The notes below the pieces were generated by a model that had not been told where the DNA came from, ran no database searches, and saw nothing but the letters and a program-made list of their open reading frames with translations. From Bacillus sp. ISL-37 (GTDB lineage Bacteria; Bacillota; Bacilli; Bacillales; Cytobacillaceae), in assembly GCF_018613315.1 (NCBI RefSeq), contig NZ_JAGGQL010000011.1, positions 99,136 to 135,075 of the forward strand: DNA of 35,940 nt, written 5' to 3'. The position numbers were made by a program, and so were the translations under genes. This document shows positions 1 to 32,884 of this stretch, piece by piece. Each line of letters starts with the position of its first letter. Positions within the stretch are counted from its first letter, which is position 1.

Positions 1-206
1 GAGGTTTAATGGACATTTCAAGCAAGATGCCGGAGTGAAATGTCTATTAACAGGAGTTTAATAGACATTTCAAGTAAGATGCAGGAGCAAAATGTCTAAT
101 AACAGGAGTTTAATAGACATTTCAAGCAAAAGGCAGCAGCGAAATGTCAAATAACAGGGGTTTAATGGACATTTTCAGTAAGATGCTGAAGCGAAATATC
201 TAATAA
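1..206. repeat. Tandem array of four 52-bp palindromic units
   Basis: The GACATTT motif recurs at 12, 64, 116 and 168, an exact 52-bp period. Each unit pairs a left arm GACATTTC with a right arm GAAATGTC (12-19 with 37-44 in unit 1). The pairing extends into flanking TTAATA/TATTAA, giving arms of about 13-14 bp around a 17-nt loop. The fourth unit has a degenerate right arm (GAAATATC). The array is cut by the window edge, so the true copy number is unknown. Units abut with no unique spacer, so it is not a CRISPR. It lies downstream of the leftward HxlR-type gene. Confidence 0.9.
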
Positions 207-3515: not shown

Positions 3516-3534
3516 TAGTTAGAAGGGCTTTAAC

Positions 3535-3895
3535 GGCCACTTTTTTAGGAAGTCTCACTAAGATTGTCCGATAGAGTAGTTATAACGGACATTTTTTCAT
3601 GAAACCAAAGTGAGATTGTCCGATAGAGCTCTTCTAACGGACACATTTTCAGGAAATCGTCGTGAGTTCGTCCGATAGAGCGCTTCTAACGGACACATTT
3701 TAAGGAGATCGTCGTGAGTTCGTCCGATAGAGCTCTTCTAACGAACACATTTTCAGGAAATTGTCGTGAGTTCGTCCATAGAGTGCTGCTAATGGACGCA
3801 TTTTCAGGAAATCGTCTTGAGATTGTCCGATAGAGCGCGTCTAACGGACACTTTTTCGAGAAATTCTCCCGAGTTTTTCCAATAGAACTTTCTAA
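3535..3895. repeat. Tandem array of about seven 52-bp units with GTCCG/CGGAC arms
   Basis: The G of the GTCCGATAGAG core falls at 3566, 3618, 3670, 3722, 3774 and 3825, with a degenerate copy near 3877. The steps are 52,52,52,52,51,52; the 51 reflects one deleted G in the fifth copy. Each unit carries CTAACGGACA, which can pair with TGTCCGATAG of the flanking unit (10-bp arms, one mismatch). The array fills the gap between the convergent azoR and katA genes. No spacers and no ORF of significance were found. Confidence 0.9.
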
Positions 3896-6682: not shown

Positions 6683-6793
6683 AATTGGTTATGCGGAAAC
6701 TTTTTGCATGACACTCAAAGTAAAAAAACTTGTTAAATATTCAAATAAAACATACTATTTAATTGCAATACATAGCGAATGGAGGAATGTTTT

Positions 6794-7732
6794 TTGATAG
6801 TTAAATCACGTGTTGAATCCCTTGAACTGCAGATTCTGAGGATACTGAATGCCCGAATGAACTTGTCTCCGAAAGAATACAGTAACTATCTCTACCTGGA
6901 AAAAGGTTATGAAGGAGAAGTAATTTTTGATCGCAGGATGGAGGAGATTGAAAAAGGCTTCTTGGTAATGAATGACCTGCTTCTTGAACATGGAAATACC
7001 AAATTTCAAATCGATTCCCTATTCATCTCCAAGATCACCCACTTGTTTGAAGTAAAGTATTTCGAAGGCGATTATTATACTGAAGGTGACAGGTGGTACA
7101 CCAGCAATGGAACAGAAATCAAGAATCCTTTACAACAAATGGAAAGAGCAGAGTCTCTCCTGCGAAGGTTGGTACGAGACCTTGGATTCAACATTAATAT
7201 CGAATCAACTCTAGTCTTCGTGAACCCGAACTTTTACCTCTATCAAGCTCCTCGTAATTTACCAATTATCTTTCCCAACCAGATTCCGAGACTACTTCAT
7301 AATCTGCAAAAACAAATTACCCCAATAAAAAATACTCATACAAATCTATCAGATAGGCTGCTTTCCCTGCATTCCCACGATTCACCGTATAAGAGGCTCC
7401 CTGAACATAATTTCGAGAAATTGAAGAAGGGAATAGCCTGTTCTCATTGTCATACATTGAATACAATAGTCACGAGAAAAACATTAATATGCAATAATTG
7501 CGGGAAGCGGGAAAATATTCATGAAGCAGTATTAAGAAGCGTTAGAGACCTTCAATTACTTTTTCCGGAAGAAGAATTTACAGTCAGCAAGATTCAAGAT
7601 TGGTGCAAATCAATCAAAACGAAAAAAGCCATCAGGAACATTCTTGTAGATGACTTTACATTGAGCGGCTGTGGCCGTAGTGCTCACTATACAATTAAAG
7701 AAAATAAAGAGGGTTATCTGCTATTAGAGTAA
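6794..7732 (+). CDS. NERD-domain protein with C-terminal zinc ribbon
   Basis: A 312-residue protein. An N-terminal nuclease-related (NERD, Pfam PF08378) domain begins near residue 37. Nuclease-core-like residues are seen in GYEGE (E40), QIDSLFI (D74) and FEVKYFEG (E86, K88). A four-Cys zinc ribbon, CSHC...CNNC, lies at about 216-236 and is followed by a helical tail. The family is common in Bacillaceae but its substrate is unknown. No signal peptide or membrane segment is present. TTG 6794 is the likely start: GGAGG (6781-6785) lies 8 nt upstream and MIVKSRVESL matches how such proteins usually begin. An ATG at 6779 would overlap the ribosome-binding site. The gene is alone on its strand, and the 53-bp array follows it. 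Confidence 0.8.
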   Translation: MIVKSRVESLELQILRILNARMNLSPKEYSNYLYLEKGYEGEVIFDRRMEEIEKGFLVMNDLLLEHGNTKFQIDSLFISKITHLFEVKYFEGDYYTEGDRWYTSNGTEIKNPLQQMERAESLLRRLVRDLGFNINIESTLVFVNPNFYLYQAPRNLPIIFPNQIPRLLHNLQKQITPIKNTHTNLSDRLLSLHSHDSPYKRLPEHNFEKLKKGIACSHCHTLNTIVTRKTLICNNCGKRENIHEAVLRSVRDLQLLFPEEEFTVSKIQDWCKSIKTKKAIRNILVDDFTLSGCGRSAHYTIKENKEGYLLLE

Positions 7733-7770: not shown

Positions 7771-8213
7771 AGCCATTCAAGGTTAAATGCAGCCTTATAC
7801 ACCTCATTTCACCTACATAAGGGAACATTTAAAGGCTAAATGTACCCTTATACATCGAATTTCATCTACATAAGGGCACATTTGAAGGCTAAATGTACCC
7901 TTATACATTGCACTTCACCAACATAAGGGCACATTTAAAGGCTAAATGTACCCTTATACATTGCATTTCACCTACATAAGGGAACATTTAAAGGCTAAAT
8001 GCACCCTTATGCACCGCGTTTCATCTACATAAGGGAACATTTAAAGGCTAAATGTACCCTTATGCACCGCAATTCATCTACATAAGGGTACATTTCAAGT
8101 GTTAAATGTACCCTTATGCATCGTATTTCACCTACATAAGGGAACATTTGAAGGCTAAATGTACCCTTATGCACCGCGATTCATCTACATAAGGGCACAT
8201 TTCAAGGTTTAAT
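7771..8213. repeat. Tandem array of eight 53-bp hairpin units plus edge half-units
   Basis: ACATAAGGG starts at 7815, 7868, 7921, 7974, 8027, 8080, 8134 and 8187: steps of 53 with a single 54. Each unit holds an inverted repeat, ATAAGGGNACATTT paired with AAATGTACCCTTAT (14-bp arms, 7-8-nt loop). A right-arm-like half-unit begins the array at about 7774 and a left-arm half-unit ends it, touching the stop codon of the leftward dacC-like gene at 8217. It fills the gap between two convergent genes. No other terminator was seen for either gene, so the hairpins may serve that role. Confidence 0.93.
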
Positions 8214-8216
8214 GCG

Positions 8217-14406: not shown

Positions 14407-14427
14407 CAACTTTAACTTAATACATTC

Positions 14428-14563
14428 CTTCGGGGTCGGGTGAAATTCCCAACCGGCGGTGATGAAGCTTTCGCTTCTTAGTCCGTGACCCGGTTAACAT
14501 TTGTTAAACGGTGGATCTGGTGAAACTCCAGGGCCGACAGTTAAAGTCTGGATGGGAGAAGGA
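14428..14563 (+). promoter_or_regulatory. FMN riboswitch (RFN element)
   Basis: The conserved RFN blocks appear in order: CTTCGGGGTCGGGTGAAATTC, CCAACCGGCGGTGATGA, the variable CTTTCGCTT hairpin, AGTCCGTGACCCG, then GGTGGATCTGGTGAAACTCC, GGGCCGACAGT and AGTCTGGATGGGAGAAGGA. It binds FMN and represses the downstream riboflavin operon by premature termination at 14637-14670. Confidence 0.97.
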
Positions 14564-14634
14564 AAAAAACGAGGATTAAAAGAACGGGATCAGTATGCCC
14601 TTTTTTAACTCTCTAGTTTGACATTGCCTTTTTT

Positions 14635-23229: not shown

Positions 23230-23352
23230 GAACTGGAAAAAAACGCCCGGAATTTCCAGTTCGCCAATATAATTTGATTTTCGCCAATAAGGAAGTGGAA
23301 ATCGCCAATAAATTTATTTTTTCGCCAATAAAAATTGAAAATCGCCAATAAA
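23230..23352 (-). repeat. 20-21-bp GCGAA-type tandem array with terminal cap, minus orientation
   Basis: Read on the minus strand, TTTATTGGCGAA-type units have their CGC/GCG core at + positions 262, 282, 303, 323 and 343 (all +23000), steps of 20,21,20,20. The array ends at about 23233-23264 in a 32-bp cap: GCGAACTGGAAATT, 7 variable bases, then a T7 run and CCAG. CTGGAAA and TTTCCAG make the cap itself an inverted repeat. Outside the last ordered unit a degenerate unit holds CATGAAA in place of GCGAAA, in phase. Confidence 0.85.
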
Positions 23353-23416
23353 ATGATTCACGCATGAAAAAGGGTTGAAACTTGTATTGAAAACTAGACT
23401 TGAACATGCCTGTTTC

Positions 23417-23549
23417 CATGAAAAAAATGATATTATAGCGAAAATTTTAATTTTATAGCGACTTTCTGATTTTTATAGCGACTTTTTCGTTTTTATAGCG
23501 AAAAATTCGTTTTTATAGCGAATTGGAAATTATCCGCGATTTTTTTCGG
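23417..23549 (+). repeat. 20-bp GCGAA-type tandem array with terminal cap, plus orientation
   Basis: TTTTATAGCGAA units have GCG at 23438, 23458, 23478, 23498 and 23518, exactly 20 bp apart. The last unit opens the cap GCGAATTGGAAATT, followed by 8 variable bases and a T7 run (23518-23549). It faces away from the array at 23230-23352, so the pair forms an inverted composite about 320 bp long between the convergent subtilisin and CAP-protein genes. Confidence 0.88.
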
Positions 23550-23558
23550 ATTTTCTAC

Positions 23559-23587
23559 TAAAAAAACCGAGCCAATCTGACTCGGTT
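23559..23587 (-). terminator. Terminator of the CAP-domain gene
   Basis: On the minus strand AACCGAG and CTCGGTT pair, followed by T7. The stem begins at the last base of the TGA stop codon. Confidence 0.88.
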
Positions 23588-24729
23588 CAAAACTTCCTCT
23601 TACTATAAAAATTCTCAGTAAAATAAGGCTCATGCTTCGGCCCGAATGCGACGCCGACACCTAGCAGTTTAAAGTCAGACTTCAGGATGTTTTCACGGTG
23701 CCCTAGCGAGTTCATCAAGCCTTCGTGGGCAAAGATGCTGCTGAACTGTCCATACGCAAGATTCTCTCCGGCGACCGAAAACGCAATATCATCCTCTTCC
23801 ATCCTGTCAAAAGGCGATTGTCCCTCAGGGTTCGTGTGGCTGAAATACGAGTTTTCCGCCATGTCGGCACTGTGCTTTCTGGCAGTGACCCTCACCTCGT
23901 CATCCCAGGTAAGAATGCCAAGACCGTGCATCAACCTTGAAGCATTGGTCATGTCAAACAGCTGGTATTCAAACCCTTCCTTCAAAGCCTCACTTGCCTC
24001 CGTATAAAAGCCCGCCTTGCTTTGTTCAAGTTTTTCGCTGACCATCTGGATTGCTGTTACGGTATTGTTTTGATGTTTATCATAAAAAACCGTCACATAG
24101 CTGTCATCCAAATTATAGACGTCATAGTCCTGGTCTTTTTGGAACTGGTAATAGACAAGTCCTTTCCTAATCTCGCTAAGTGGTTCCCCAAGTGACTGAC
24201 GGACTTCTTCTTTTGGAGTGCCATACTTGATTCCGGTTTTAGTCGCAATCAAATCCTGGTTTGTATACAAAGCATTCACAACCCCATCTTTGCTGTAGGA
24301 AACCATTATGAAGTTTTGGAAATTTTCATGATAAGCATGCCACTCTGTTCCATACTCGTTCACGGAAACCCGTTTAGGGGCACCAAGCTGAGCTTCTACA
24401 TCACCCTTTGCATCGCCAATGCCAATATTATGGAAGGTGAATGTTTTTTCAGAAGGTGTTTCCAGCTCGGGCTTAGCCACTTTGGGCAAAAGGTTTTGCT
24501 CATCCTGCGTCAATTCTTCCTTTTTCTCATTAAGCTGCCAGATCAGCTGATTAATCCCGCTGTTCACCGTTTCCAATGCTTTGCTGAGTTCGGGATTTTC
24601 TTTTAACTTATCTATTTCAGTATTTAAATTTTGAAGATTCTTTTCATTCGTCAAAAATGGCCATGCAAAGTAAAGCAAAGCCCCTAAAAGCAAGAGTGAA
24701 AATAAACGTCTCAAGAGTTTTCTCACCAT
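23587..24729 (-). CDS. CAP/SCP-domain protein with CAP-associated N-domain (YlbC-like)
   Basis: A 380-residue membrane-anchored extracellular protein. A basic N-terminus with one TM helix (about 8-26) precedes a coiled stretch (about 30-75) and a CAP-associated domain (about 98-235, with IGIGDAKGDVEAQLGAPKR). A C-terminal CAP domain (about 255-380) carries FDMTNASRLMHGLGILTWDD, HSADMAENSYFSHTNPEGQSP, AGENLAYG and SLGHRENIL. The domain order matches B. subtilis YlbC. CAP proteins of bacilli, including the SafA-region and YlbC types, have no settled function. It is convergent with the subtilisin gene and divergent from the DoxX-like gene. Confidence 0.88.
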   Translation of the reverse strand: MVRKLLRRLFSLLLLGALLYFAWPFLTNEKNLQNLNTEIDKLKENPELSKALETVNSGINQLIWQLNEKKEELTQDEQNLLPKVAKPELETPSEKTFTFHNIGIGDAKGDVEAQLGAPKRVSVNEYGTEWHAYHENFQNFIMVSYSKDGVVNALYTNQDLIATKTGIKYGTPKEEVRQSLGEPLSEIRKGLVYYQFQKDQDYDVYNLDDSYVTVFYDKHQNNTVTAIQMVSEKLEQSKAGFYTEASEALKEGFEYQLFDMTNASRLMHGLGILTWDDEVRVTARKHSADMAENSYFSHTNPEGQSPFDRMEEDDIAFSVAGENLAYGQFSSIFAHEGLMNSLGHRENILKSDFKLLGVGVAFGPKHEPYFTENFYSKRKF

Positions 24730-24801
24730 CCTTCGTTCCTTATCACCAATATACCCATTAATACTTGATTAAAAAAGCATACTAGCTTGGTGACAGGGCA
24801 A

Positions 24802-24828
24802 ACTTTGTATAGTAAAACTATCCAAAGT
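24802..24828. promoter_or_regulatory. 27-bp imperfect palindrome in a divergent promoter region
   Basis: ACTTTGTATAGT and ACTATCCAAAGT are 12-bp arms with one mismatch around AAA. It lies between the divergent CAP-protein and DoxX-like genes and is a candidate operator. Confidence 0.45.
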
Positions 24829-24900
24829 CAGATTTTGTGAAAACATTCACATTATGTTCAAAACTTTGCTGCTAATATCTTATGATTCAGTAGTATTATT

Positions 24901-24914
24901 ACTATCTAGATAGT
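24901..24914. promoter_or_regulatory. Perfect 14-bp palindrome ACTATCTAGATAGT
   Basis: It lies 26 bp before the GTG start of the DoxX-like gene. It shares ACTAT/ATAGT half-sites with the larger palindrome at 24802-24828, suggesting the same regulator binds both. Confidence 0.45.
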
Positions 24915-24939
24915 GTTTATATTGCCAGGAGGTTTTATA

Positions 24940-25935
24940 GTGAAAAAACTGTTGCAAATCATCATTGGATTAGGACTTATTCTGACCCCTTTTTATACAA
25001 ATGCTCACGTAAAGTGGTTTACCGAAGTTGCGCCAAAGAAAGAAAGTATTGAAAATATATTATCGCCGTTATTTATGGGTCTTGCCTTACTGGCGGCAGT
25101 TGTTCTCGCTTCATTGACTATAATTATTCCGAAAATGGCTCAAATGCCGCTAATCCAAAAGTGGGATGATTACCTTTCAGGCTTCCGGAAATATTCTAGA
25201 TATCTATTGAAGTACGGAACGGCAGTCGCCTTGATTATCCAGGTCACAAACGGTACCTTGTTTGCACCGGAGTTCCAGTTGGACAGCACCTTGATGACGG
25301 TTTTAGCGTGGATCACGATTGGCCTGCTCCTTGTTCCGCACCATATCTCAACAAAATTAGGGGCATCCATTTTACTGATCCTATTTATCATGGTCACGGT
25401 AAAGCATGGTATTTTTTATATGCTTGATTACGGTTTTTATGTGGCTATCATCGGCGTGCTGCTTGTCGGCAGCACTAAGCTTGAAAACGTTGGCTTCCCA
25501 TTCTTATATTTGGGGACAGGACTTTCATTATGCTGGGTCGCCGTTGAAAAATGGGTATACCCAACCATGTCGCTGGATATCGTCGCAAACCACCAGGTAC
25601 CTACCTTCGGCTTTGAACCAGCAGCTTTTATCGTCATGGCCGCTTTTGTAGAATTCGTAGTCGGCTACTTGCTGGTTGTCGGTATCCTGAATCGAGTGCT
25701 TGGTTTTGTAGTCACAACGATTTTTATTTTAACGACAATGTTATTCGGTTTTACTGAAATCATCGGCCACTTTATGATTCATATTGTCCTGATCATCTTC
25801 ATCATCGAAGGCGTATCCTTCTATAATCCGCCAATTAAAATGCACAAAACAAGAGTGGACCAATTCATCTTTATATTTTTGAACTTCATTTTCGTCTTAT
25901 CGACCTTTGTGTTGATTTATTATCGATTTGCTTAA
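24940..25935 (+). CDS. DoxX-like multi-pass membrane protein
   Basis: A 331-residue protein with about nine hydrophobic helices. An N-terminal signal-like helix ends in TNAHVKWFTEVAPKKES, and the HVKWF motif would face outside. The C-terminal half contains DoxX-like helices (FLYLGTGLSLCWVAVEKWVYPT, FVEFVVGYLLVVGIL). Members are annotated as DoxX-family or quinol-oxidase-associated proteins, but no function is established. GTG 24940 is chosen because AGGAGG (24927-24932) lies 7 nt upstream; extension to 24913 has no ribosome-binding site. It is monocistronic, with a terminator at 25938-25963. Confidence 0.72.
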   Translation: MKKLLQIIIGLGLILTPFYTNAHVKWFTEVAPKKESIENILSPLFMGLALLAAVVLASLTIIIPKMAQMPLIQKWDDYLSGFRKYSRYLLKYGTAVALIIQVTNGTLFAPEFQLDSTLMTVLAWITIGLLLVPHHISTKLGASILLILFIMVTVKHGIFYMLDYGFYVAIIGVLLVGSTKLENVGFPFLYLGTGLSLCWVAVEKWVYPTMSLDIVANHQVPTFGFEPAAFIVMAAFVEFVVGYLLVVGILNRVLGFVVTTIFILTTMLFGFTEIIGHFMIHIVLIIFIIEGVSFYNPPIKMHKTRVDQFIFIFLNFIFVLSTFVLIYYRFA

Positions 25936-25937
25936 GC

Positions 25938-25963
25938 AGCCTTCTTTGGGGGCTGTTTTTTCT
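25938..25963 (+). terminator. Terminator of the DoxX-like gene
   Basis: CAGCC and GGCTG pair around an 8-nt loop, followed by a T-rich tail. Confidence 0.75.
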
Positions 25964-25998
25964 TTTTAGAAAAAAATATAACTTACACTTCGAGAATT

Positions 25999-26117
25999 GT
26001 CTAGCTGCAGCGCCTAGCCCCTCGAGACGCTTCGGTCCGCCCAATGAAGTCAAAGAACGAGTTCACTGGTCGGCCCTCCAGCGCTTGTCGGGGCTGACCA
26101 AGGCGCTTTCGCATTTC
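25999..26117. repeat. Dispersed Bacillaceae intergenic stem-loop repeat
   Basis: A GC-rich element of about 119 bp in AT-rich surroundings. It runs from TCTAGCTGCAGCGCCTAGCC through TCGCTTCGGTCCGCCC-like and GGCGGCCCTCCAGCGCTTGT-like blocks to GGGGCTGACCAAGGCGCTTT. AGCGCC and GGCGCT end blocks and GCCCC/GGGGC make it self-complementary. I recognise this sequence as one that recurs in intergenic regions of many Bacillaceae genomes; I know no agreed name. It sits directly upstream of the kynU promoter. Confidence 0.75.
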
Positions 26118-26138
26118 ATAGAATTATCAGACCTTTTG

Positions 26139-26168
26139 TTGACGCTTGCTTCTGTTCTTTGTTACGAT
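26139..26168 (+). promoter_or_regulatory. Promoter of the kyn operon
   Basis: TTGACG (26139-26144), an 18-bp spacer and TACGAT (26163-26168), about 35 bp upstream of the kynU start codon. Confidence 0.6.
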
Positions 26169-26202
26169 TTCTCTAGTTGCAAATGGAATGGGAGAGATGA
26201 CG

Positions 26203-27489
26203 ATGAAGCCTTATTCTTTTCAACCTGATGCGGAATTTGCCGCACAGCTTGACCGCGAAGATCTATTAGCCCGTTACCGGGATGAATTTTACCTGAAACC
26301 TGATTCAATCTATCTTGATGGAAACTCGCTTGGTCTTCTTTCAAAGCGGGCTGAACAAACATTGCTTGAATCATTGGCCGACTGGCGCGAGCTTGGCATC
26401 GATGGCTGGATGGAAGGCAACCATCCGTGGTTCTATTTATCTGAAAAACTAGGAGAATTGACTGCTCCGCTTGTTGGTGCCGCTCCTGAAGAGGTTATTG
26501 TAAGCGGATCCACAACAGTCAACCTGCATCAGCTGGTGGCTACTTTTTATAAGCCTGAGGGGAAGAGGACAAAAATTCTTGCTGATGAATTGAATTTCCC
26601 GTCCGATATCTATGCGCTTCAAAGCCAGCTGCGAATCCATGGCTATGATCCGGATACGCACCTGATCAGAGTGAAAAGCAGGGATGGCAGGTTCTTGGCT
26701 GAGGACGATATCATTGAGGCAATGACCGAAGAAATTGCGCTTGTTGTGCTGCCGACTGTGCTGTACCGCAGTGGGCAAATCCTCGATATGGAGCGGTTGA
26801 CAAGGGCGGCTCACCAGCGTGGAATCCTTATTGGCTTCGATGGCTGCCATTCAATTGGCGCAATTCCTCATGCTTTCTCTGATTGGGGAGTCGACTTTGC
26901 CTACTGGTGCAATTATAAGCATTTGAATGGCGGGCCAGGGGCTGTGGCAGGTCTTTATGTGAACTCGAAGCATTTTGGCACGAAGCCTGGTCTTGCAGGT
27001 TGGTTCGGTTCAAGGAAAGATAAACAGTTTGATATGGAGCATGTTCTGACACCTGCAGAGAATGCCGGTGCCTACCAGATTGGTACACCACATGTGTTGA
27101 GCCTTGCTCCTTTACTTGGCTCATTGGAAATGTTCGCCGAAGCGGGAATTCAGAATATCCGCGAAAAATCATTGAGGATTAATCAATATCTAATGGACCT
27201 GATTCAGCATGAGTTAGGCGAAGCAGGTTTTAAAATCGGCAGTCCTGTTGAAGATTTTAAACGTGGCGGCCATGTCAGTCTTGAGCACAAAGAAGCAGCA
27301 AGGATTTGCAAGGCGTTGAAGGAAAAAGGAATCATCCCTGATTTCCGCGCTCCGAACATCGTCCGACTGGCACCTGTGGCCCTATACACTTCTTACACTG
27401 ATGTCTGGAATGCTGTCCAGATGTTAGAAGAAATCATGGATCATAAATTATACGAGAAATTCAGCAATGAGCGCGGAGTTGTAGCGTAG
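26203..27489 (+). CDS. kynU: Kynureninase
   Basis: A 428-residue PLP-dependent hydrolase that converts L-kynurenine to anthranilate and alanine. The PLP lysine is K239 in [20 protein letters not shown]. Other family features are [25 protein letters not shown] and the [12 protein letters not shown] phosphate/PLP Asp. ATG 26203 is preferred over ATG 26197 because GGGAG ends 8 nt upstream of it. Longer in-frame forms to 26146 read through the promoter. First gene of kynUAB, 14 nt before kynA. Confidence 0.96.
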
Positions 27490-27503
27490 GGGGGAGTCTG
27501 GCA

Positions 27504-28337
27504 ATGAAGGAAGAACAAAAAACTTCACATGAAATTCATACCGATTTTTCAAAAGAGCTGTCTTACGGAAGTTATCTGCAATTGGATAACATCCTATCGA
27601 GCCAGCACCGCTTGTCTGATCACCATGATGAAATGCTGTTCATCATCATCCACCAGGCTAGCGAGCTGTGGATGAAGCTGATTTTACATGAAGTGAGCGC
27701 GGCGATTGACTGCATCCGTAAAAATGACCTGGAGCCATCCTTTAAGATGCTGTCGAGGGTGTCGAGGATCCAGCAGCAGCTGATCCAGTCGTGGAGTGTA
27801 CTATCGACGCTGACTCCGGCTGAGTATATGGAATTCCGAGACAAGCTTGGCCATTCATCAGGTTTTCAATCCTATCAGAACCGTTTGATTGAATTTGCTT
27901 TGGGACAAAAACAATCTCATGTTCTATCTGTTTATAAGCACGATGCGGACCTGTATAAAAAGATGGAGGATGCGCTGTATGAACGGTCGATTTATGATGC
28001 GGCGATCGGTGCGATGGCGATGCGCGGCCTGCCGATAGATGATGCAGCCTTAAATCGTGATTGGTCTGCTCCATACGAACCAAATGCCAGTGTCGAGGAA
28101 GCGTGGCTGACGGTGTACCGTAACGTCGATCAATATTGGGATTTATATGAGCTTGCGGAGAAGCTTGTCGATATCGGCAGCCAGCAGCAGCTTTGGCGTT
28201 TTAACCATATGAGTACTGTTGAACGGATTATCGGCCACAAAACTGGAACAGGCGGTTCCGCCGGTGTATCCTATCTGAAAAAGGTCGTAGACCACCGATT
28301 TTTCCCTGAGCTATGGAGCCTGAGGACGAAGCTATAA
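27504..28337 (+). CDS. kynA: Tryptophan 2,3-dioxygenase
   Basis: A 277-residue haem dioxygenase opening the tryptophan indole ring to N-formylkynurenine, the first step. Family motifs are [38 protein letters not shown], the [16 protein letters not shown] stretch, and [28 protein letters not shown] with the haem His. GGGGAG lies about 8 nt before the ATG. A 202-bp gap separates it from kynB. Confidence 0.96.
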
Positions 28338-28364
28338 AATAAGGGCTGATTACTAGAGATTGTT

Positions 28365-28390
28365 GTTAAAATCCTAAAGCCGATTTTAAC
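28365..28390. promoter_or_regulatory. Perfect 9-bp inverted repeat in the kynA-kynB gap
   Basis: GTTAAAATC and GATTTTAAC with an 8-nt loop. No T run follows, so it is not a typical terminator. It could be an operator or an mRNA structure. Confidence 0.4.
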
Positions 28391-28459
28391 GTATATAAAG
28401 TTATTTTGCTGGTCGGTATTAAGTTTGCATGCTCTTTTCTCTTTATAAAGGAGTCAAGG

Positions 28460-28573
28460 ATGCAAAGAAAAAGTGTCATTCAATCCTATTTTGTAGTCAA
28501 TAGTTTGAGAAAAGAGCTTAAAAGAAAGAAGGAAACAGTATGGGAAATTGGATTGATATTTCGCAGGTTTTAA
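28460..28573 (+). CDS. Possible 37-codon upstream ORF overlapping the kynB start
   Basis: ATG 28460 follows AAGGAG (28448-28453) by 6 nt and encodes MQRKSVIQSYFVVNSLRKEL and 17 more residues, rich in Lys and Arg. It ends at 28573, overlapping kynB by 34 nt in another frame. Its only Trp codon (TGG, 28541-28543) falls on the kynB ATG. It could be a leader peptide that couples or blocks kynB translation, or chance; coding evidence is the ribosome-binding site alone. Confidence 0.35.
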   Translation: MQRKSVIQSYFVVNSLRKELKRKKETVWEIGLIFRRF

Positions 28574-29166
28574 ATGATAAAATTCCTGTTTGGCCGGGCG
28601 ACACTCCATTTCATTATGAAGTGAGCTGGGGAATGGAAGAAAGCGGCTCTGTGAATGTCGGACAGGTGACGATGAGCACGCATACCGGCACGCATATCGA
28701 TGCGCCTTTCCATTTCGAAAACGATGGAAGAAAAGTGATCGATCTCGACTTTAACCTTTATATCGGCCCTGCAAAGGTCATCCATTTGCAAAATCCAGCC
28801 AGTATCGGAGTTAAGGAAGTAGAATCTTTGGATTTGCAGGGGGTCAAGCGTTTGATGATCCGTACGGACGCGTGGCAGGATAAGACTGTGTTCCCTGAAT
28901 CCATTCCGCATATCGAGCCTGAATTGGCTGCTTATCTTGCTGAGCAAGGAGTGCAATTGCTTGGTCTTGATTTGCCATCGGTCGATCCATTGGATAGCAA
29001 GGAACTGAGGGCCCACCATGAATTGAACAGCCAGGGCATTCATATCCTTGAAGGATTGGTACTTGATAAAATTGAACCAGGAGAATACGAGCTCGCTGCT
29101 CTGCCTCTGCCGCTGGAACAGGGTGACGGCAGTCCTGTCAGAGCCGTGATCCGTGAAATTAAATAA
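28540..29166 (+). CDS. kynB: Kynurenine formamidase (arylformamidase)
   Basis: A 208-residue cyclase-family, metal-dependent hydrolase that converts N-formylkynurenine to kynurenine, step 2 of the pathway. STHTGTHIDAPFHFE gives the metal ligands H48, H52 and D54. IDISQVLNDKIPVWPGDTPF is the usual N-terminus and GLDLPSVDPLDS is typical of KynB. AAGAAGG lies 7 nt upstream of the ATG. With kynU and kynA it completes tryptophan-to-anthranilate catabolism. A terminator follows. Confidence 0.95.
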   Translation: MGNWIDISQVLNDKIPVWPGDTPFHYEVSWGMEESGSVNVGQVTMSTHTGTHIDAPFHFENDGRKVIDLDFNLYIGPAKVIHLQNPASIGVKEVESLDLQGVKRLMIRTDAWQDKTVFPESIPHIEPELAAYLAEQGVQLLGLDLPSVDPLDSKELRAHHELNSQGIHILEGLVLDKIEPGEYELAALPLPLEQGDGSPVRAVIREIK

Positions 29167-29178
29167 AGTTAGAAGAGG

Positions 29179-29208
29179 GAGGCTGCCATTTGGTGCAGTC
29201 TCTTTTTT
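29179..29208 (+). terminator. Terminator of the kyn operon
   Basis: GAGGCTGC and GCAGTCTC pair (one G-U) around an 8-nt loop, followed by six T. Confidence 0.82.
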
Positions 29209-29233
29209 GTCGAAAATTTTGCCACAAACATTG

Positions 29234-29284
29234 TTGACCGATGTGGTCAATGAGGAGTAAGATGTAATTGACCGATGTGGTCAA
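29234..29284 (+). promoter_or_regulatory. tetR promoter with twin identical operators
   Basis: TTGACCGATGTGGTCAA occurs at 29234-29250 and again, identically, at 29268-29284, 34 bp apart. Each is a perfect inverted repeat (TTGACC/GGTCAA, 5-bp centre). The first copy supplies the -35 (TTGACC), and TAAGAT (29258-29263) 18 bp on is the -10. The second copy covers the start region. Autorepression by the following TetR protein is a strong inference. Confidence 0.82.
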
Positions 29285-29305
29285 TAATAATTTAAGGAGG
29301 GCGTT

Positions 29306-29935
29306 ATGTCTTCAAAGTTTTTAAGCTTGAATCCTGAAAAGCAAGAACGAATCCTGAACGCCGCTCTAAAGGAGTTTGCCCTGAAAGGATACGAAAAGGC
29401 ATCCACGAATGAAATCGTCAAATCAGCAGGCATCTCAAAAGGACTGCTATTCCACTATTTTAATAACAAGAAAGAACTTTATCTGTTCCTTTATAACCAC
29501 TTTGCCGGTGTGATGGTAGAAGAGTTCTTTAATGAATTGGACCTGAGCGAACGCGACATTTTCGAACGGATGAAAACGCTGATGATCCTGAAAAACAAAC
29601 TGATGGCAAGGCATCCGGAAGTATTCGACTTCATGGTGGCAGCCTCCATGGAAACCGCGGAAGAAGTAAAGGAAATATTGAATAACACAAATACAGAGCT
29701 GATCCAGGCAAGTTACAGCAGGCTATTCGAGAATATTGACATCACTAGGTTCAGAGCTGGAGTCGACATCCAGCGAGCCATCAACATCATAATGTGGACA
29801 CTCCAGGGCTTCAGCAACCAGGAATTAGAAAAAGCCAAAAAGCTGAACAAAGCACATCACGACTTTGATGAAGCATTCAAAGAAGTCGAAGTGTATATCG
29901 AGATGATGAAGAAGGCTTTTTACAAGAATGTCTAA
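29306..29935 (+). CDS. TetR/AcrR-family transcriptional regulator
   Basis: A 209-residue repressor. The N-terminal HTH (about 10-55) contains QERILNAALKEFALKGYEKASTNEIVKSAGISKGLLFHYFNNKKELYLFLY. The C-terminal ligand domain is helical and unassigned. AAGGAGGGC precedes the ATG. It lies 50 nt upstream of an ABC exporter operon on the same strand, so it probably controls the exporter in response to its substrate or a membrane-active compound. Confidence 0.93.
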   Translation: MSSKFLSLNPEKQERILNAALKEFALKGYEKASTNEIVKSAGISKGLLFHYFNNKKELYLFLYNHFAGVMVEEFFNELDLSERDIFERMKTLMILKNKLMARHPEVFDFMVAASMETAEEVKEILNNTNTELIQASYSRLFENIDITRFRAGVDIQRAINIIMWTLQGFSNQELEKAKKLNKAHHDFDEAFKEVEVYIEMMKKAFYKNV

Positions 29936-29985
29936 GAAAAAGAGAATGAAAAGATAAAAAGAATTATAATCTGGGAGGGTCTGGC

Positions 29986-30870
29986 ATGAACGTGATTGAG
30001 ATTAAAAATCTGACTAAAATGTACGGCAAGGCCAGGGGAATTGAGGATGTTAGTTTCAATGTGAAGGAAGGAGAAATTTTCGGGTTCATTGGCCCGAATG
30101 GCGCAGGGAAATCAACGACGATCAGGACGTTACTATCATTGATTTATCCAACGAGCGGCAGCGCGACGATATTTGGAAAAGATATCATCACCGCTGCTCC
30201 GGAAATCAAAAAGGATATCGGGTACCTGCCATCTGAGGTATTTTACTATGACAATATGAAGGTTATGGATCTGCTCAAGTATTCCGCAAGCTTTTACAAA
30301 AAGGACTGCACAAAGCGGATTAAAGAGCTTGCTGACATCATGGAGCTCGACCTTACGAAGAAAATCGATGACCTTTCGCTTGGTAACAAAAAGAAGGTTG
30401 GCATCGTTCAGGGACTGCTTCATGAACCGAAGCTAATTATCCTTGATGAACCGACGAGCGGGCTGGATCCGCTCATGCAGCAGAAGTTCTTTGACCTTCT
30501 TGAAAAAGAAAACAAGAAAGGCGCGACGATTCTCTTTTCTTCTCATATTCTCAGCGAGGTGCAGAGACTGTGCGACAGGGTTGCGATTATCAAGGATGGC
30601 CGGATTGTCACTGTCGAGAAAATCAGCACGTTAAAAGAAAACACCTACAAGAAATTCAAAATCGAAACCAATTCCGTAATCGATAAAACCCTTTTCAATA
30701 TTGACGGTGTGAACCAGCTTGTGCAGGACGGTGGATTGGTCAGCTTCCTTTTCAGAGGCAACATCAATTCCATCACGAAGAAAATTGCTGAAATCGAGAT
30801 TGCGAACCTATGGGTCGAGGAGCCTGACTTGGAAGAGATCTTCATGCATTACTATGAAAAGGAGGAATAG
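29986..30870 (+). CDS. ABC-2 type transporter ATP-binding protein
   Basis: A 294-residue ATPase. Walker A is GPNGAGKST (36-44), the signature is LSLGNKKKVG (about 131-140) and Walker B is LIILDEPTSGLDP (about 150-162). The H-loop is in LFSSHILSEVQRL. A C-terminal extension (about 215-294) resembles drug-exporter ATPases. GGGAGG precedes the ATG. The first permease gene starts 3 nt after the stop codon. Substrate unknown. Confidence 0.95.
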   Translation: MNVIEIKNLTKMYGKARGIEDVSFNVKEGEIFGFIGPNGAGKSTTIRTLLSLIYPTSGSATIFGKDIITAAPEIKKDIGYLPSEVFYYDNMKVMDLLKYSASFYKKDCTKRIKELADIMELDLTKKIDDLSLGNKKKVGIVQGLLHEPKLIILDEPTSGLDPLMQQKFFDLLEKENKKGATILFSSHILSEVQRLCDRVAIIKDGRIVTVEKISTLKENTYKKFKIETNSVIDKTLFNIDGVNQLVQDGGLVSFLFRGNINSITKKIAEIEIANLWVEEPDLEEIFMHYYEKEE

Positions 30871-30873
30871 AAC

Positions 30874-31671
30874 ATGAATATATTCCTTCATGAACTGAAG
30901 GCATATCGAAAGTCGACTATTATATGGACCTTGTCGTTGGTGGCGATGGTTGTCTTGTTTTTATCAATGTTTCCTTCCTTTTCAAAGGATGCAGAAGAGT
31001 TTAAGAAGCTGCTTGAAGGATTCCCGGTTGAATTAAGGAAAGCAATTGGATTGTCAGTGGACAGCATCGCGACATTGATTGGTTTTTTCTCTTACGCATT
31101 CCTATACCTGAAGCTAGCGGGCGCCATCCAGGCTATGAATCTTGGAACCTCGATCCTATCAAAGGAAACACGGGAAAAGACAGCCGACTTTCTGCTCACC
31201 AAGCCAGTGACAAGGACTCAGGTAGTCACTTCCAAGCTGTTGGCAGCGCTGGTTTCGCTGGTAATCACCAACATCGTTTTTATCGGAGCGACTTTCGTGA
31301 TGGCGTCTATTGTAGAAGGTGACGATTTTAACAAGCAAGCTTTGTTCCTGATTGCTATTTCCCTGTTTTTCATCCAGCTAATGTTCATGGCACTAGGAAT
31401 TATCATTTCGGTAATTTTCCCGAGAATAAAATCGGTGATATCCGTTTCACTAGGTACTGTTTTTGGATTTTTCATGCTCGGAATGATCAGTTCGACGACA
31501 GAAGATGAAGCCCTGCGTTATTCGACGCCGTTCAATTACTTTGATTCAACGTACATCACACAACATTCAAGCTATGAAACTTCATTTGTCATAGGGGGGG
31601 TAATTTTTATCATCGCTGCGGTCTCGGCCAGCTATTATTTTTACGCAAAAAAAGATGTCCATTCCGTTTAG
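30874..31671 (+). CDS. ABC-2 type permease subunit 1
   Basis: A 265-residue membrane protein with about six helices. It starts MNIFLHELKAYRKSTIIW, and the motif SKETREKTADFLLTKPVTRTQVVTSKLLAALV after the second helix marks the ABC-2 permease. It is clearly related to the next protein, equal in length. The pair probably forms a heterodimeric channel with two copies of the preceding ATPase. Confidence 0.92.
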   Translation: MNIFLHELKAYRKSTIIWTLSLVAMVVLFLSMFPSFSKDAEEFKKLLEGFPVELRKAIGLSVDSIATLIGFFSYAFLYLKLAGAIQAMNLGTSILSKETREKTADFLLTKPVTRTQVVTSKLLAALVSLVITNIVFIGATFVMASIVEGDDFNKQALFLIAISLFFIQLMFMALGIIISVIFPRIKSVISVSLGTVFGFFMLGMISSTTEDEALRYSTPFNYFDSTYITQHSSYETSFVIGGVIFIIAAVSASYYFYAKKDVHSV

Positions 31672-31686
31672 GGAGGAGGGAAAGTC

Positions 31687-32484
31687 ATGAATTTATTTAA
31701 AAGGGAAATGAAAGCAAACCGAAAGTCCTTAATTATCTGGAGCATCGGAGTCGTCTTCATGGTCGCCGCGGGCATGGGCAAGTACTCAAGCCTTGAAGGG
31801 ACGGGGCAATCGATGAATGCGCTGATGGCTGATATGCCTAAATCTTTGCAGGCCATCATGGGAACGGGGTCACTCGATCTGTCCACACCGGTTGGTTATT
31901 ACGGAGTCTTATTCTTATACCTGACTGTGATGGCAGCCATTCATGCCGCGATGCTCGGCTCGAACATCATTGCCAAGGAAGAGCGTGACAAGACGGTCGA
32001 GTTCCTGCTGGTCAAACCAGTTTCAAGAACGAGAATGATAACATCCAAACTAATAGCCGCTTTGGTCAACATTCTGATTTTCAATATTGTGACCTTCGCT
32101 TCCTCTGTGGCAATGGTCCAGAAATATGCGGAAGGCGAAAGTGTGATCGGGGATATTTCCTTATTGATGGCCGGGATGTTCATCCTACAGCTGATCTTCC
32201 TGGTTATCGGAACCGCAATCGCTGCTATCTATAAAAATGCGAAAAAAGCCACATCGCTGGCAACAGGAATCTTGCTTATCCTTTTCATTTTATCAATAGC
32301 AATTGATATGAATGAAAAGCTGGATGGATTGAAGTTCCTGACTCCATTTAAATATTATGACGCGAAGCTTGTTTTGGAGGAAGGCGGGTTCGAACCGCTT
32401 TATCTGGCACTGTCAGCCGTGCTGCTGTTCGGGTTGACAATCGTGACCTACGTATTTTATCGAAAAAGAGATATGAATGTTTGA
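31687..32484 (+). CDS. ABC-2 type permease subunit 2
   Basis: A 265-residue paralogue of the preceding permease. MNLFKREMKANRKSLIIW and AKEERDKTVEFLLVKPVSRTRMITSKLIAALVN align with it across the same regions, indicating tandem duplication. AGGGAGGAGG lies upstream. Last gene of the exporter operon; a terminator begins 2 nt after the stop codon. Confidence 0.92.
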   Translation: MNLFKREMKANRKSLIIWSIGVVFMVAAGMGKYSSLEGTGQSMNALMADMPKSLQAIMGTGSLDLSTPVGYYGVLFLYLTVMAAIHAAMLGSNIIAKEERDKTVEFLLVKPVSRTRMITSKLIAALVNILIFNIVTFASSVAMVQKYAEGESVIGDISLLMAGMFILQLIFLVIGTAIAAIYKNAKKATSLATGILLILFILSIAIDMNEKLDGLKFLTPFKYYDAKLVLEEGGFEPLYLALSAVLLFGLTIVTYVFYRKRDMNV

Positions 32485-32485
32485 G

Positions 32486-32512
32486 AATCCCGGGAATCCG
32501 GGATTTTCTTAT
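32486..32512 (+). terminator. Terminator of the ABC exporter operon
   Basis: AATCCCGG and CCGGGATT form a perfect 8-bp stem with a 4-nt loop, then TTCTTATT. Confidence 0.82.
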
Positions 32513-32578
32513 TGGAGATGGAGATTTTTATTGGGTATTTTGTGAATACCACACATTTTTTCTCCAAAGTGTATAGGC

Positions 32579-32741
32579 ATTCCACGAATTTTTCACCTAA
32601 TAACGGGAGCGTGAAGCTTAATTCCGCGAAATACCCACCTGATTCCGCGAAAAAGACGCTTAATTTCGCGAAATACCCACTTAATTCCGCGAAAATCCAG
32701 GATAATTCCGCGAACTGGAAATTATCAAGGATTTTTTCCAG
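32579..32741 (+). repeat. 21-bp GCGAA-type tandem array with terminal cap
   Basis: ATTCCGCGAAA units place GCG at 32626, 32647, 32668, 32689 and 32710, exactly 21 bp apart. Degenerate in-phase copies lie at 32605 and 32584 (CCACGAA). The last unit opens a 32-bp cap (32710-32741), GCGAACTGGAAATT, 8 variable bases, T6 and CCAG. Its first 14 bases are identical to the cap of the minus-oriented array at 23233-23264. The array fills the 400-bp gap between the exporter operon and hemY; the rest of the gap (32742-32884) holds the hemY promoter region. Confidence 0.9.
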
Positions 32742-32884
32742 CAACCTCGTTCACATTTTAGTAAAAAAACTCCCATCTTCCTTTGAATTTCCGGTGATAT
32801 ACTTTAAATATGTTAAATACTGCACATACCTAGTTAATTCAACTATAGGATAATCAATACATTACTAAAGAATAGGTGAGCGGA

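What the first reader, a model, noticed from the sequence alone, without database searches (positions are those of the whole stretch)
23230..32741. A GCGAA repeat family with a conserved 32-bp terminal cap
Three tandem arrays, at 23233-23352 (minus), 23417-23549 (plus) and 32579-32741 (plus), use different units (TTTATTGGCGAA, TTTTATAGCGAA, ATTCCGCGAAA) that share a GCGAA core at a 20-21-bp period. Each ends on the same side in a 32-bp cap: GCGAA(C/T)TGGAAATT, 7-8 variable bases, then T6-7. In two caps CTGGAAA and TTTCCAG form an inverted repeat. Units that differ between arrays but are uniform within one, with a conserved end, suggest a defined element with array-wise homogenisation and a functional boundary. 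I know of no described family like this.
Basis: seen in the sequence. Interest (0 to 1): 0.72.

Follow-up and report, generated by a model that had tools for sequence, protein, structure and literature searches.

The report
Nuclease genes with private repeat arrays
Short repeated DNA arrays scattered between the genes of a soil-type bacterium appear to belong to a family of nuclease-like proteins, each with its own repeat, which suggests an owner for a class of bacterial repeats that had none.

Summary
In detail: three arrays with caps are there (0 in 300 shuffles). The exact cap 14-mer occurs 27 times in the genome, 27 of 27 after a 20-21-bp array, and in 20 of 21 genus genomes. The arrays fit a published but unexplained class, Bacillus tandem repeats of 20-21 or 52 nt (PMC8161180). 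New is a candidate owner. NERD-domain genes (PD-(D/E)XK nuclease fold) with a CxxC..CxxC ribbon have an array of their own alongside in 72 of 75 cases examined, in the genus and 10 other genera; NERD genes without that ribbon in 0 of 19. At one locus NERD allele and motif switch together: TTGGCGA in 12 of 12 genomes, TATAGCGA in 7 of 7, over at least 4 allele changes on a gene tree. TTGG arrays are more decayed where the resident NERD is the other allele (p = 2e-5 over arrays; p = 0.11 over genomes). Best reading: a NERD protein binds, maintains and probably spreads its private arrays, rather as RAYTs do REPINs. Pairing is well supported; binding, cleavage and function are inferred.

The parts
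23231..23352 (-). Array 1: five TATTGGCGA-type units at 20-21 bp, plus cap; the NERD gene with this motif lies elsewhere in the genome (G000:C24:28578-29558)
23231..23264 (-). Cap of array 1, GCGAACTGGAAATT-N7-TTTTTTTCCAGTT, imperfect inverted repeat
23430..23551 (+). Array 2: five TATAGCGA-type units at 20 bp, plus cap; in other genomes this motif accompanies the other allele of the same NERD locus
23518..23551 (+). Cap of array 2, GCGAATTGGAAATT; second arm diverged
32618..32743 (+). Array 3: five ATTCCGCGA-type units at 21 bp, plus cap; the NERD gene with this motif is at G000:C4:29294-30256
32710..32743 (+). Cap of array 3
6779..7732 (+). NERD-domain protein (317 aa, PF08378 E 3.3e-15, CxxC..CxxC ribbon), the window's own paralog, with another repeat family
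7779..8214 (+). 53-bp array (8.2 copies) just after the NERD gene; the arm pattern occurs at 5 loci in the genome
5560..5675 (.). Dispersed array of the GTGGTCGATATA family; other members lie upstream of the NERD genes L202, L234-L239 and L241
3527..3864 (.). 52-bp array (TAACGGACA/TGTCCGATA arms) of the same class; owner not identified
4..206 (.). 52-bp array (AATAGACATTT/AAATGTCTAAT arms) of the same class; owner not identified

Best explanation
The GCGAA arrays are dispersed DNA sites of a two-part chromosomal system: a NERD-domain protein (predicted PD-(D/E)XK nuclease fold, then a CxxC..CxxC ribbon and a helical C-terminus) and a private tandem array that sits beside its gene and is scattered through intergenic DNA. 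Each such NERD paralog has its own motif. Shown by sequence: the array is adjacent to the gene; NERD allele and motif switch together at one locus; the arrays are dispersed; repeat sizes follow whole helical turns; TTGG arrays are, over arrays, more decayed in genomes with the other allele. Inferred: the protein binds the units side by side on one face of the helix with the cap as boundary; cutting or nicking in the array followed by recombinational repair founds, expands and homogenises arrays, so they decay once the matching NERD is gone. It works like RAYT/REPIN but is not a member of that family.
For: Own genome: 13 NERD genes; 11 have an adjacent array, L211 is cut off by the contig end, L200 has neither this ribbon nor an array. 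Wider: NERD with ribbon 72 of 75 (genus 50 of 51, ten other genera 22 of 24), NERD without it 0 of 19, control ORFs 4 of 15; Fisher p 4e-17 and 1e-8. At one NERD locus 12 of 12 genomes with 79-100% identical NERD have TTGGCGA and 7 of 7 with 56-65% have TATAGCGA; the allele needs 6 changes, at least 4 forced, on a two-gene tree of 17 genomes. G007, the only genus genome without caps, has no NERD above 44% identity to this one. TTGG share of typed caps 105 of 186 versus 33 of 111 by allele; per-genome test p = 0.020. TTGG arrays: 0.46 motif mismatches per 28 bp in 48 arrays with matching NERD, 3.16 in 25 without, p = 2e-5. Periods: 74 of 94 NERD-flank arrays within 1.3 bp of a multiple of 10.5. 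The GE, QID and (E/D)xK residues E49, D82, K97 (L213 numbering) are identical in 85 of 85; nuclease-like fold. Motif 0.992 versus spacer 0.900 conserved in 11 orthologous arrays. A second NERD's arms pattern: 56 hits at 14 loci, all 46 bp long although 41-61 was allowed, reversed control 0.
Against: Binding and cleavage were not tested. With genomes as units the TTGG decay is only a trend (four against six, p = 0.11; G014's two arrays are intact; G015 has the strongest decay) and TATAG decay is not significant either way (arrays 0.96 versus 1.54, p = 0.42; genomes p = 0.17). 18 of the 19 typed genomes hold both array types (only G011 has no TATAG cap), and in four TTGG-NERD genomes TATAG caps prevail (G004 5:14, G001 3:8, G019 8:12, G002 4:5). 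At CAP-S8, G004 has mutated TTGG units beside intact TATAG units although its NERD is the TTGG allele. Three of 75 ribbon NERDs have no array (L272, L273, L307). Ten NERD loci that my signature pattern missed were left out (7 with array, 3 without). The genus count includes 18 orthologs of one NERD locus and 8 of another, so it is not 51 independent cases. Control regions of the same genomes hold arrays too (4 of 18). G009 has 5 caps and no matching NERD found (66% complete). No target-site duplication was identified.
Confidence: 0.75

Rival explanations
1. NERD proteins bind the arrays for a host function (nucleoid organisation, insulation, roadblock behind terminators); motifs persist by ordinary selection and the nuclease plays no part in making them. 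Subirana and Messeguer suggested a polymerising protein and nucleoid stabilisation.
For: Helical-turn periods and motif more conserved than spacer; caps lie mostly in the origin-proximal half of four complete genomes, 17 of 19, 15 of 17, 12 of 12, 18 of 20; the gene on the cap side ends at the cap in 82 of 112 classifiable cases, against 99 of 232 cap-free gaps of 150 bp or more.
Against: Eleven different units beside NERD genes of one genome; arrays of different families, or none, at the same locus in different species (HemY); identical catalytic-type residues in 85 of 85.
Confidence: 0.35
2. The array next to the gene is only an autoregulatory operator of NERD, and dispersed arrays are recombination by-products.
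For: Longer NERDs (316 aa or more, stop to stop) in the genus have the array upstream in 37 of 42.
Against: Shorter NERDs have it downstream of the stop, 9 of 9 in the genus; dispersed arrays are numerous and kept at syntenic places.
Confidence: 0.15
3. The arrays act as RNA: transcribed repeats, or the cap as terminator or hairpin.
For: 52-nt repeats of B. coagulans are reported as transcribed (PMC8161180, part read).
Against: No covariation of the outer arm pair (p = 0.31); no Rfam match at the arrays at gathering scores; periods follow DNA helical turns.
Confidence: 0.07
4. Arrays and NERD genes are independent passengers of shared intergenic hotspots.
For: Arrays beside 4 of 15 control genes.
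Against: 72 of 75 versus 0 of 19 for NERDs without the ribbon; 19 of 19 allele-motif match.
Confidence: 0.03

Closest known systems
Bacillus tandem repeats of 20-21 and 52 nt (Subirana and Messeguer 2021, PMC8161180; parts 1-3 of 5 and one passage search seen)
   Same: Same two repeat sizes, variable sequence, several families per genome, short conserved signals, mostly non-coding; B. selenatarsenatis, boroniphilus and subterraneus are named for the 52-nt class.
   Different: [quoted passage not shown] Cap, allele switching and decay do not appear in the parts I read.
RAYT/REP-REPIN (PMC2817692 seen as listing, PMC8049555 as passages)
   Same: A chromosomal nuclease-like gene associated with its own repeat, which is also dispersed in extragenic DNA.
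   Different: RAYTs are tyrosine transposases and REPs palindromes; here a PD-(D/E)XK-type fold and tandem arrays.
NERD domain proteins (PF08378)
   Same: Pfam match E 6e-17 for P0001.
   Different: No repeat partner of NERD proteins turned up in searches (one search returned 2,689 papers, 5 listed).
CRISPR-Cas
   Same: A nuclease gene beside a repeat array.
   Different: Period 20-21 or 52 bp, short AT-rich spacers, dozens of dispersed arrays; the neighbours read here are NERD genes.

Membership tests
Bacillus 20-21/52-nt tandem repeats | Repeat size 20-21 or 51-53 nt | tested here: met
   Of 523 steps found when looking for 19-22 bp, 385 are 20 and 131 are 21; NERD-flank arrays, any period from 10, peak at 20-21 and 52
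Bacillus 20-21/52-nt tandem repeats | Several families per genome with different sequence and short conserved signals | tested here: met
RAYT/REP | Tyrosine (HUH-type) transposase | tested here: not met
   NERD is the only Pfam family above cut-off for four proteins; PD-(D/E)XK-type fold matches, modest Z
RAYT/REP | Palindromic 20-40-bp REP with GTAG or CGTC tag | tested here: not met
   The three GCGAA unit motifs are direct repeats without these tags. Other families here do hold the letters GTAG (L204) or CGTC (L208) by eye; not followed up
RAYT/REP | Gene accompanied by its own repeat, which is also dispersed in intergenic DNA | tested here: met
RAYT/REP | Repeats are copied by the enzyme | not testable with these tools
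   needs experiment
RAYT/REP | Chromosomal, not on plasmids or phages | tested here: met
   P0001 only: no match at E 1e-5 in 72,556 plasmid and 50,697 phage records
CRISPR-Cas | Repeats with unique spacers and cas genes | tested here: not met
   Spacers of 9-10 bp, AT-rich, with recurring forms; NERD neighbours
MITE or transposon end | Terminal inverted repeats and target-site duplication | tested here: inconclusive
   Array-free sites found (G007, G009 at CAP-S8) but no clean junction
Intrinsic terminator | GC-rich hairpin followed by U-run | tested here: inconclusive
   The T-run lies inside the inverted repeat; no terminator scan and no RNA data

The most novel reading that the evidence does not exclude
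A satellite-making nuclease system: NERD-ribbon nucleases cut their own arrays, and repair amplifies and homogenises them, so each nuclease writes a private satellite family across the chromosome; swapping the nuclease allele starts replacement of the old family by the new one.
Probability: 0.4. Interest if true: 0.92.

Novelty: categorically new. Interest (0 to 1): 0.82.

Why it matters
Bacillus tandem repeats of constant size and variable sequence were published as an enigma without a known protein. The pairing found here gives each repeat family a candidate owner and makes the question testable with one protein and one DNA fragment. It also suggests a role for an uncharacterised group: in the sample examined, 72 of 75 ribbon-bearing NERDs come with arrays of their own. 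Natural alleles with different motifs at one locus are ready specificity variants. I rate the pairing as categorically new; the arrays alone would be a new member of a known kind, and the way of working resembles RAYT/REPIN.

Tried and rejected

Weaknesses: gene starts and orientations come from a simple ORF caller; 12 edge and 10 inside cases are outside the 112. NERD genes were not a full set. They were the 13 of the own genome, 18 and 8 orthologs, 29 loci given and 40 fetched from its capped list; outside the genus this is 41 of the 65 matches that one search counts. Identical proteins counted once; L211 and L306 gave no ORF, L301 (1 kb) left out; flanks 450 bp up and 600 bp down; periods 18-24, 38-46, 48-64 only. 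'Ribbon' means the pattern CxxC..CxxC after residue 150; L200, counted as without it, has a different Cys motif at its end. The set of 85 was chosen by ribbon, and the ORF choice favoured the nuclease signature, which leans the residue count. Spacers include about 20 bp ahead of the first unit, and 11 of 12 loci were retrieved. The decay test needs an exact cap. It used TTGG arrays of six of the seven TATAG-NERD genomes (G013 not sampled) and of four of the twelve TTGG-NERD genomes, 9 of 11 in G016; TATAG arrays were 27 of the 78 counted in TATAG-NERD genomes. CAP-S8 was read in 20 of 21 genomes (G002 failed), HemY in 330 bp upstream of 19.
Full report
1. Three arrays with caps lie at 23231-23352 (-), 23430-23551 (+) and 32618-32743 (+). 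Shuffled windows give no such runs or caps (0 in 300). The window lies in contig C3 of a 4.74-Mb genome. I take the genus to be Mesobacillus; this is inference, the genome itself is unnamed.

2. The family is genome-wide and, as far as searched, nearly confined to the genus. GCGAAYTGGAAATT has 27 exact hits and 27 of 27 are preceded by a 20-21-bp array. It occurs in 20 of 21 genus genomes with 5 to 27 hits each, and in 4 of 40 genomes outside the genus with 5 hits in all; the reversed control there gives 1, and my arithmetic at equal base frequencies expects 2 to 3. Over 137 distinct caps the steps between units are 385 of 20 bp, 131 of 21, 6 of 19 and 1 of 22; the most frequent array has six units; the second arm ends 17 nt after the 14-mer in 124. 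The main unit types are TATTGGCGA, TATAGCGA and ATTCCGCGA.

3. Place. In 82 of 112 classifiable cases the gene on the cap side points towards the cap, with a median of 43 or 64 bp from stop to cap; among 232 cap-free gaps of at least 150 bp the corresponding share is 99. In the window the two outward caps face the 3' ends of an S8 peptidase and a CAP-domain protein gene. Orthologous loci often keep arrays of the same unit spacing across species, and at some loci the motif type differs between species.

4. The candidate owner. Two arrays lie upstream of NERD-domain genes, and the window's own 53-bp array (7779-8214) follows a NERD gene (6779-7732). The genome has 13 NERD genes. Eleven have an adjacent tandem array, each with a different unit; L211 is cut off by a contig end; L200, which lacks the CxxC..CxxC ribbon of the others, has none. 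In the genus, longer NERDs mostly have 20-21-bp arrays upstream, shorter ones 52-bp inverted-repeat units downstream.

5. The link is wider than this genome. With the same criteria on each, NERD genes with the ribbon have an array in 72 of 75 cases (50 of 51 in the genus, 22 of 24 in ten other genera of the same family and order), NERD genes without it in 0 of 19 (8 genus, 11 other), and control ORFs in 4 of 15. The exceptions are L272, L273 and L307. Ten loci whose signature my pattern did not recognise were set aside; seven have arrays. The genus cases include sets of orthologs and are not independent. Periods of the flanking arrays peak at 20-21, 41-42, 52-53 and 61; 74 of 94 are within 1.3 bp of a multiple of 10.5, as expected of proteins lined up on one face of DNA.

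6. NERD allele and motif switch together. A NERD with at least 56% identity to the TTGG NERD (P0001) was found as best match in 19 of 21 genus genomes. Twelve are 79-100% identical and 12 of 12 have TTGGCGA upstream; seven are 56-65% identical and 7 of 7 have TATAGCGA. In 17 of 19 the printed stretch also shows the same end of the upstream gene (not L224; not within the stretch for L230), so it is the same locus in those. On a tree of two neighbouring genes from 17 genomes the allele needs 6 changes, at least 4 forced by well-supported branches; shuffled labels need 5.5 on average. So alleles seem to have been exchanged repeatedly and the array came along. The two genomes without the ortholog are G007, with no caps, and G009, 66% complete with 5 caps; both have an array-free CAP-S8 region.

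7. Arrays seem to depend on the NERD. Genomes with the TTGG allele have 105 TTGG and 81 TATAG caps, those with the TATAG allele 33 and 78; per genome the TTGG share differs with p = 0.020. TTGG arrays carry 0.46 motif mismatches per 28 bp in 48 arrays of TTGG-NERD genomes and 3.16 in 25 arrays of TATAG-NERD genomes (p = 2e-5); TATAG arrays point the same way without significance (0.96 in 27 against 1.54 in 26; p = 0.42). With genomes as units neither is significant (TTGG p = 0.11, TATAG p = 0.17). Single loci, read by eye, illustrate it: at CAP-S8, G015 (TATAG allele) has an intact TATAG array next to a decayed TTGG array, while G011 and G006 (TTGG allele) show the reverse; G004 runs against the rule.

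8. Dispersed families beyond GCGAA. The arm pattern of NERD L208's array (exact arms required by the search) gives 56 hits at 14 loci, all 46 bp long; interiors look alike within an array and differ between arrays; the reversed control gives 0. The window NERD's pattern gives 15 hits at 5 loci. Upstream of HemY, the ATTCCGCGA array of this window is seen in G000, G005, G006, G017 and partly G011; six other genomes show units of the window NERD's 53-bp family, G013 (and a relic in G002) the GTGGTCGA family, and in G018, G001, G014 and G007 I saw none (330 bp read).

10. Mechanism. Shown: pairing, co-switching, dispersal, helical period; decay of TTGG arrays without their NERD over arrays. Inferred: unit binding, cap as boundary, nuclease-driven founding and homogenisation. 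Motif over spacer conservation (0.992 against 0.900 in 11 orthologous arrays) fits selection for binding as well as active maintenance.

11. Known and new. The arrays fall within the class described by Subirana and Messeguer (PMC8161180; parts 1 to 3 of 5 read, one passage search), who proposed a polymerising protein but knew none. A related paper, PMC6749651, has neither 'NERD' nor 'nuclease' in its main text (passage search). For RAYT/REP I used a search listing and passages of PMC8049555. Searches listed no report linking NERD proteins to repeats; they cover one open library, searches listed 30 of 31 and 5 of 2,689 papers, so this is weak evidence of absence.

Noticed in passing
G018, G008, G010, G016 (complete genomes): Exact caps concentrate in the origin-proximal half of the chromosome: 17 of 19, 15 of 17, 12 of 12, 18 of 20 (dnaA placed, counts). 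Many loci are syntenic, so the genomes are not independent.
   Followed up: partly
L201, L262, L263, L264, L266, L267, L268, L302 upstream regions: What looks like one group of related NERD genes has different upstream motifs in different species (AACCGTAAATAA, AACCGTTAAATTA, AACCGGAGATAA, AACTGGTATTAAA, AACTGGGATTATC), as if motif and protein co-evolve.
   Followed up: no
window 32485-32875 and L400-L418: Upstream of HemY, arrays of three different families, or none, occupy the same intergenic place in different species.
   Followed up: partly
L240 (G014): A further NERD gene with a TCGCAAAATTC-type upstream array and a cap like the GCGAA one: cap shared, unit not.
   Followed up: no
window 14422-14567: FMN riboswitch (RF00050, 116 bits) ahead of what look like riboflavin synthesis genes. 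Ordinary.
   Followed up: no
window 4-206 and 3527-3864: Two more 52-bp palindromic arrays whose NERD owner was not identified.
   Followed up: no
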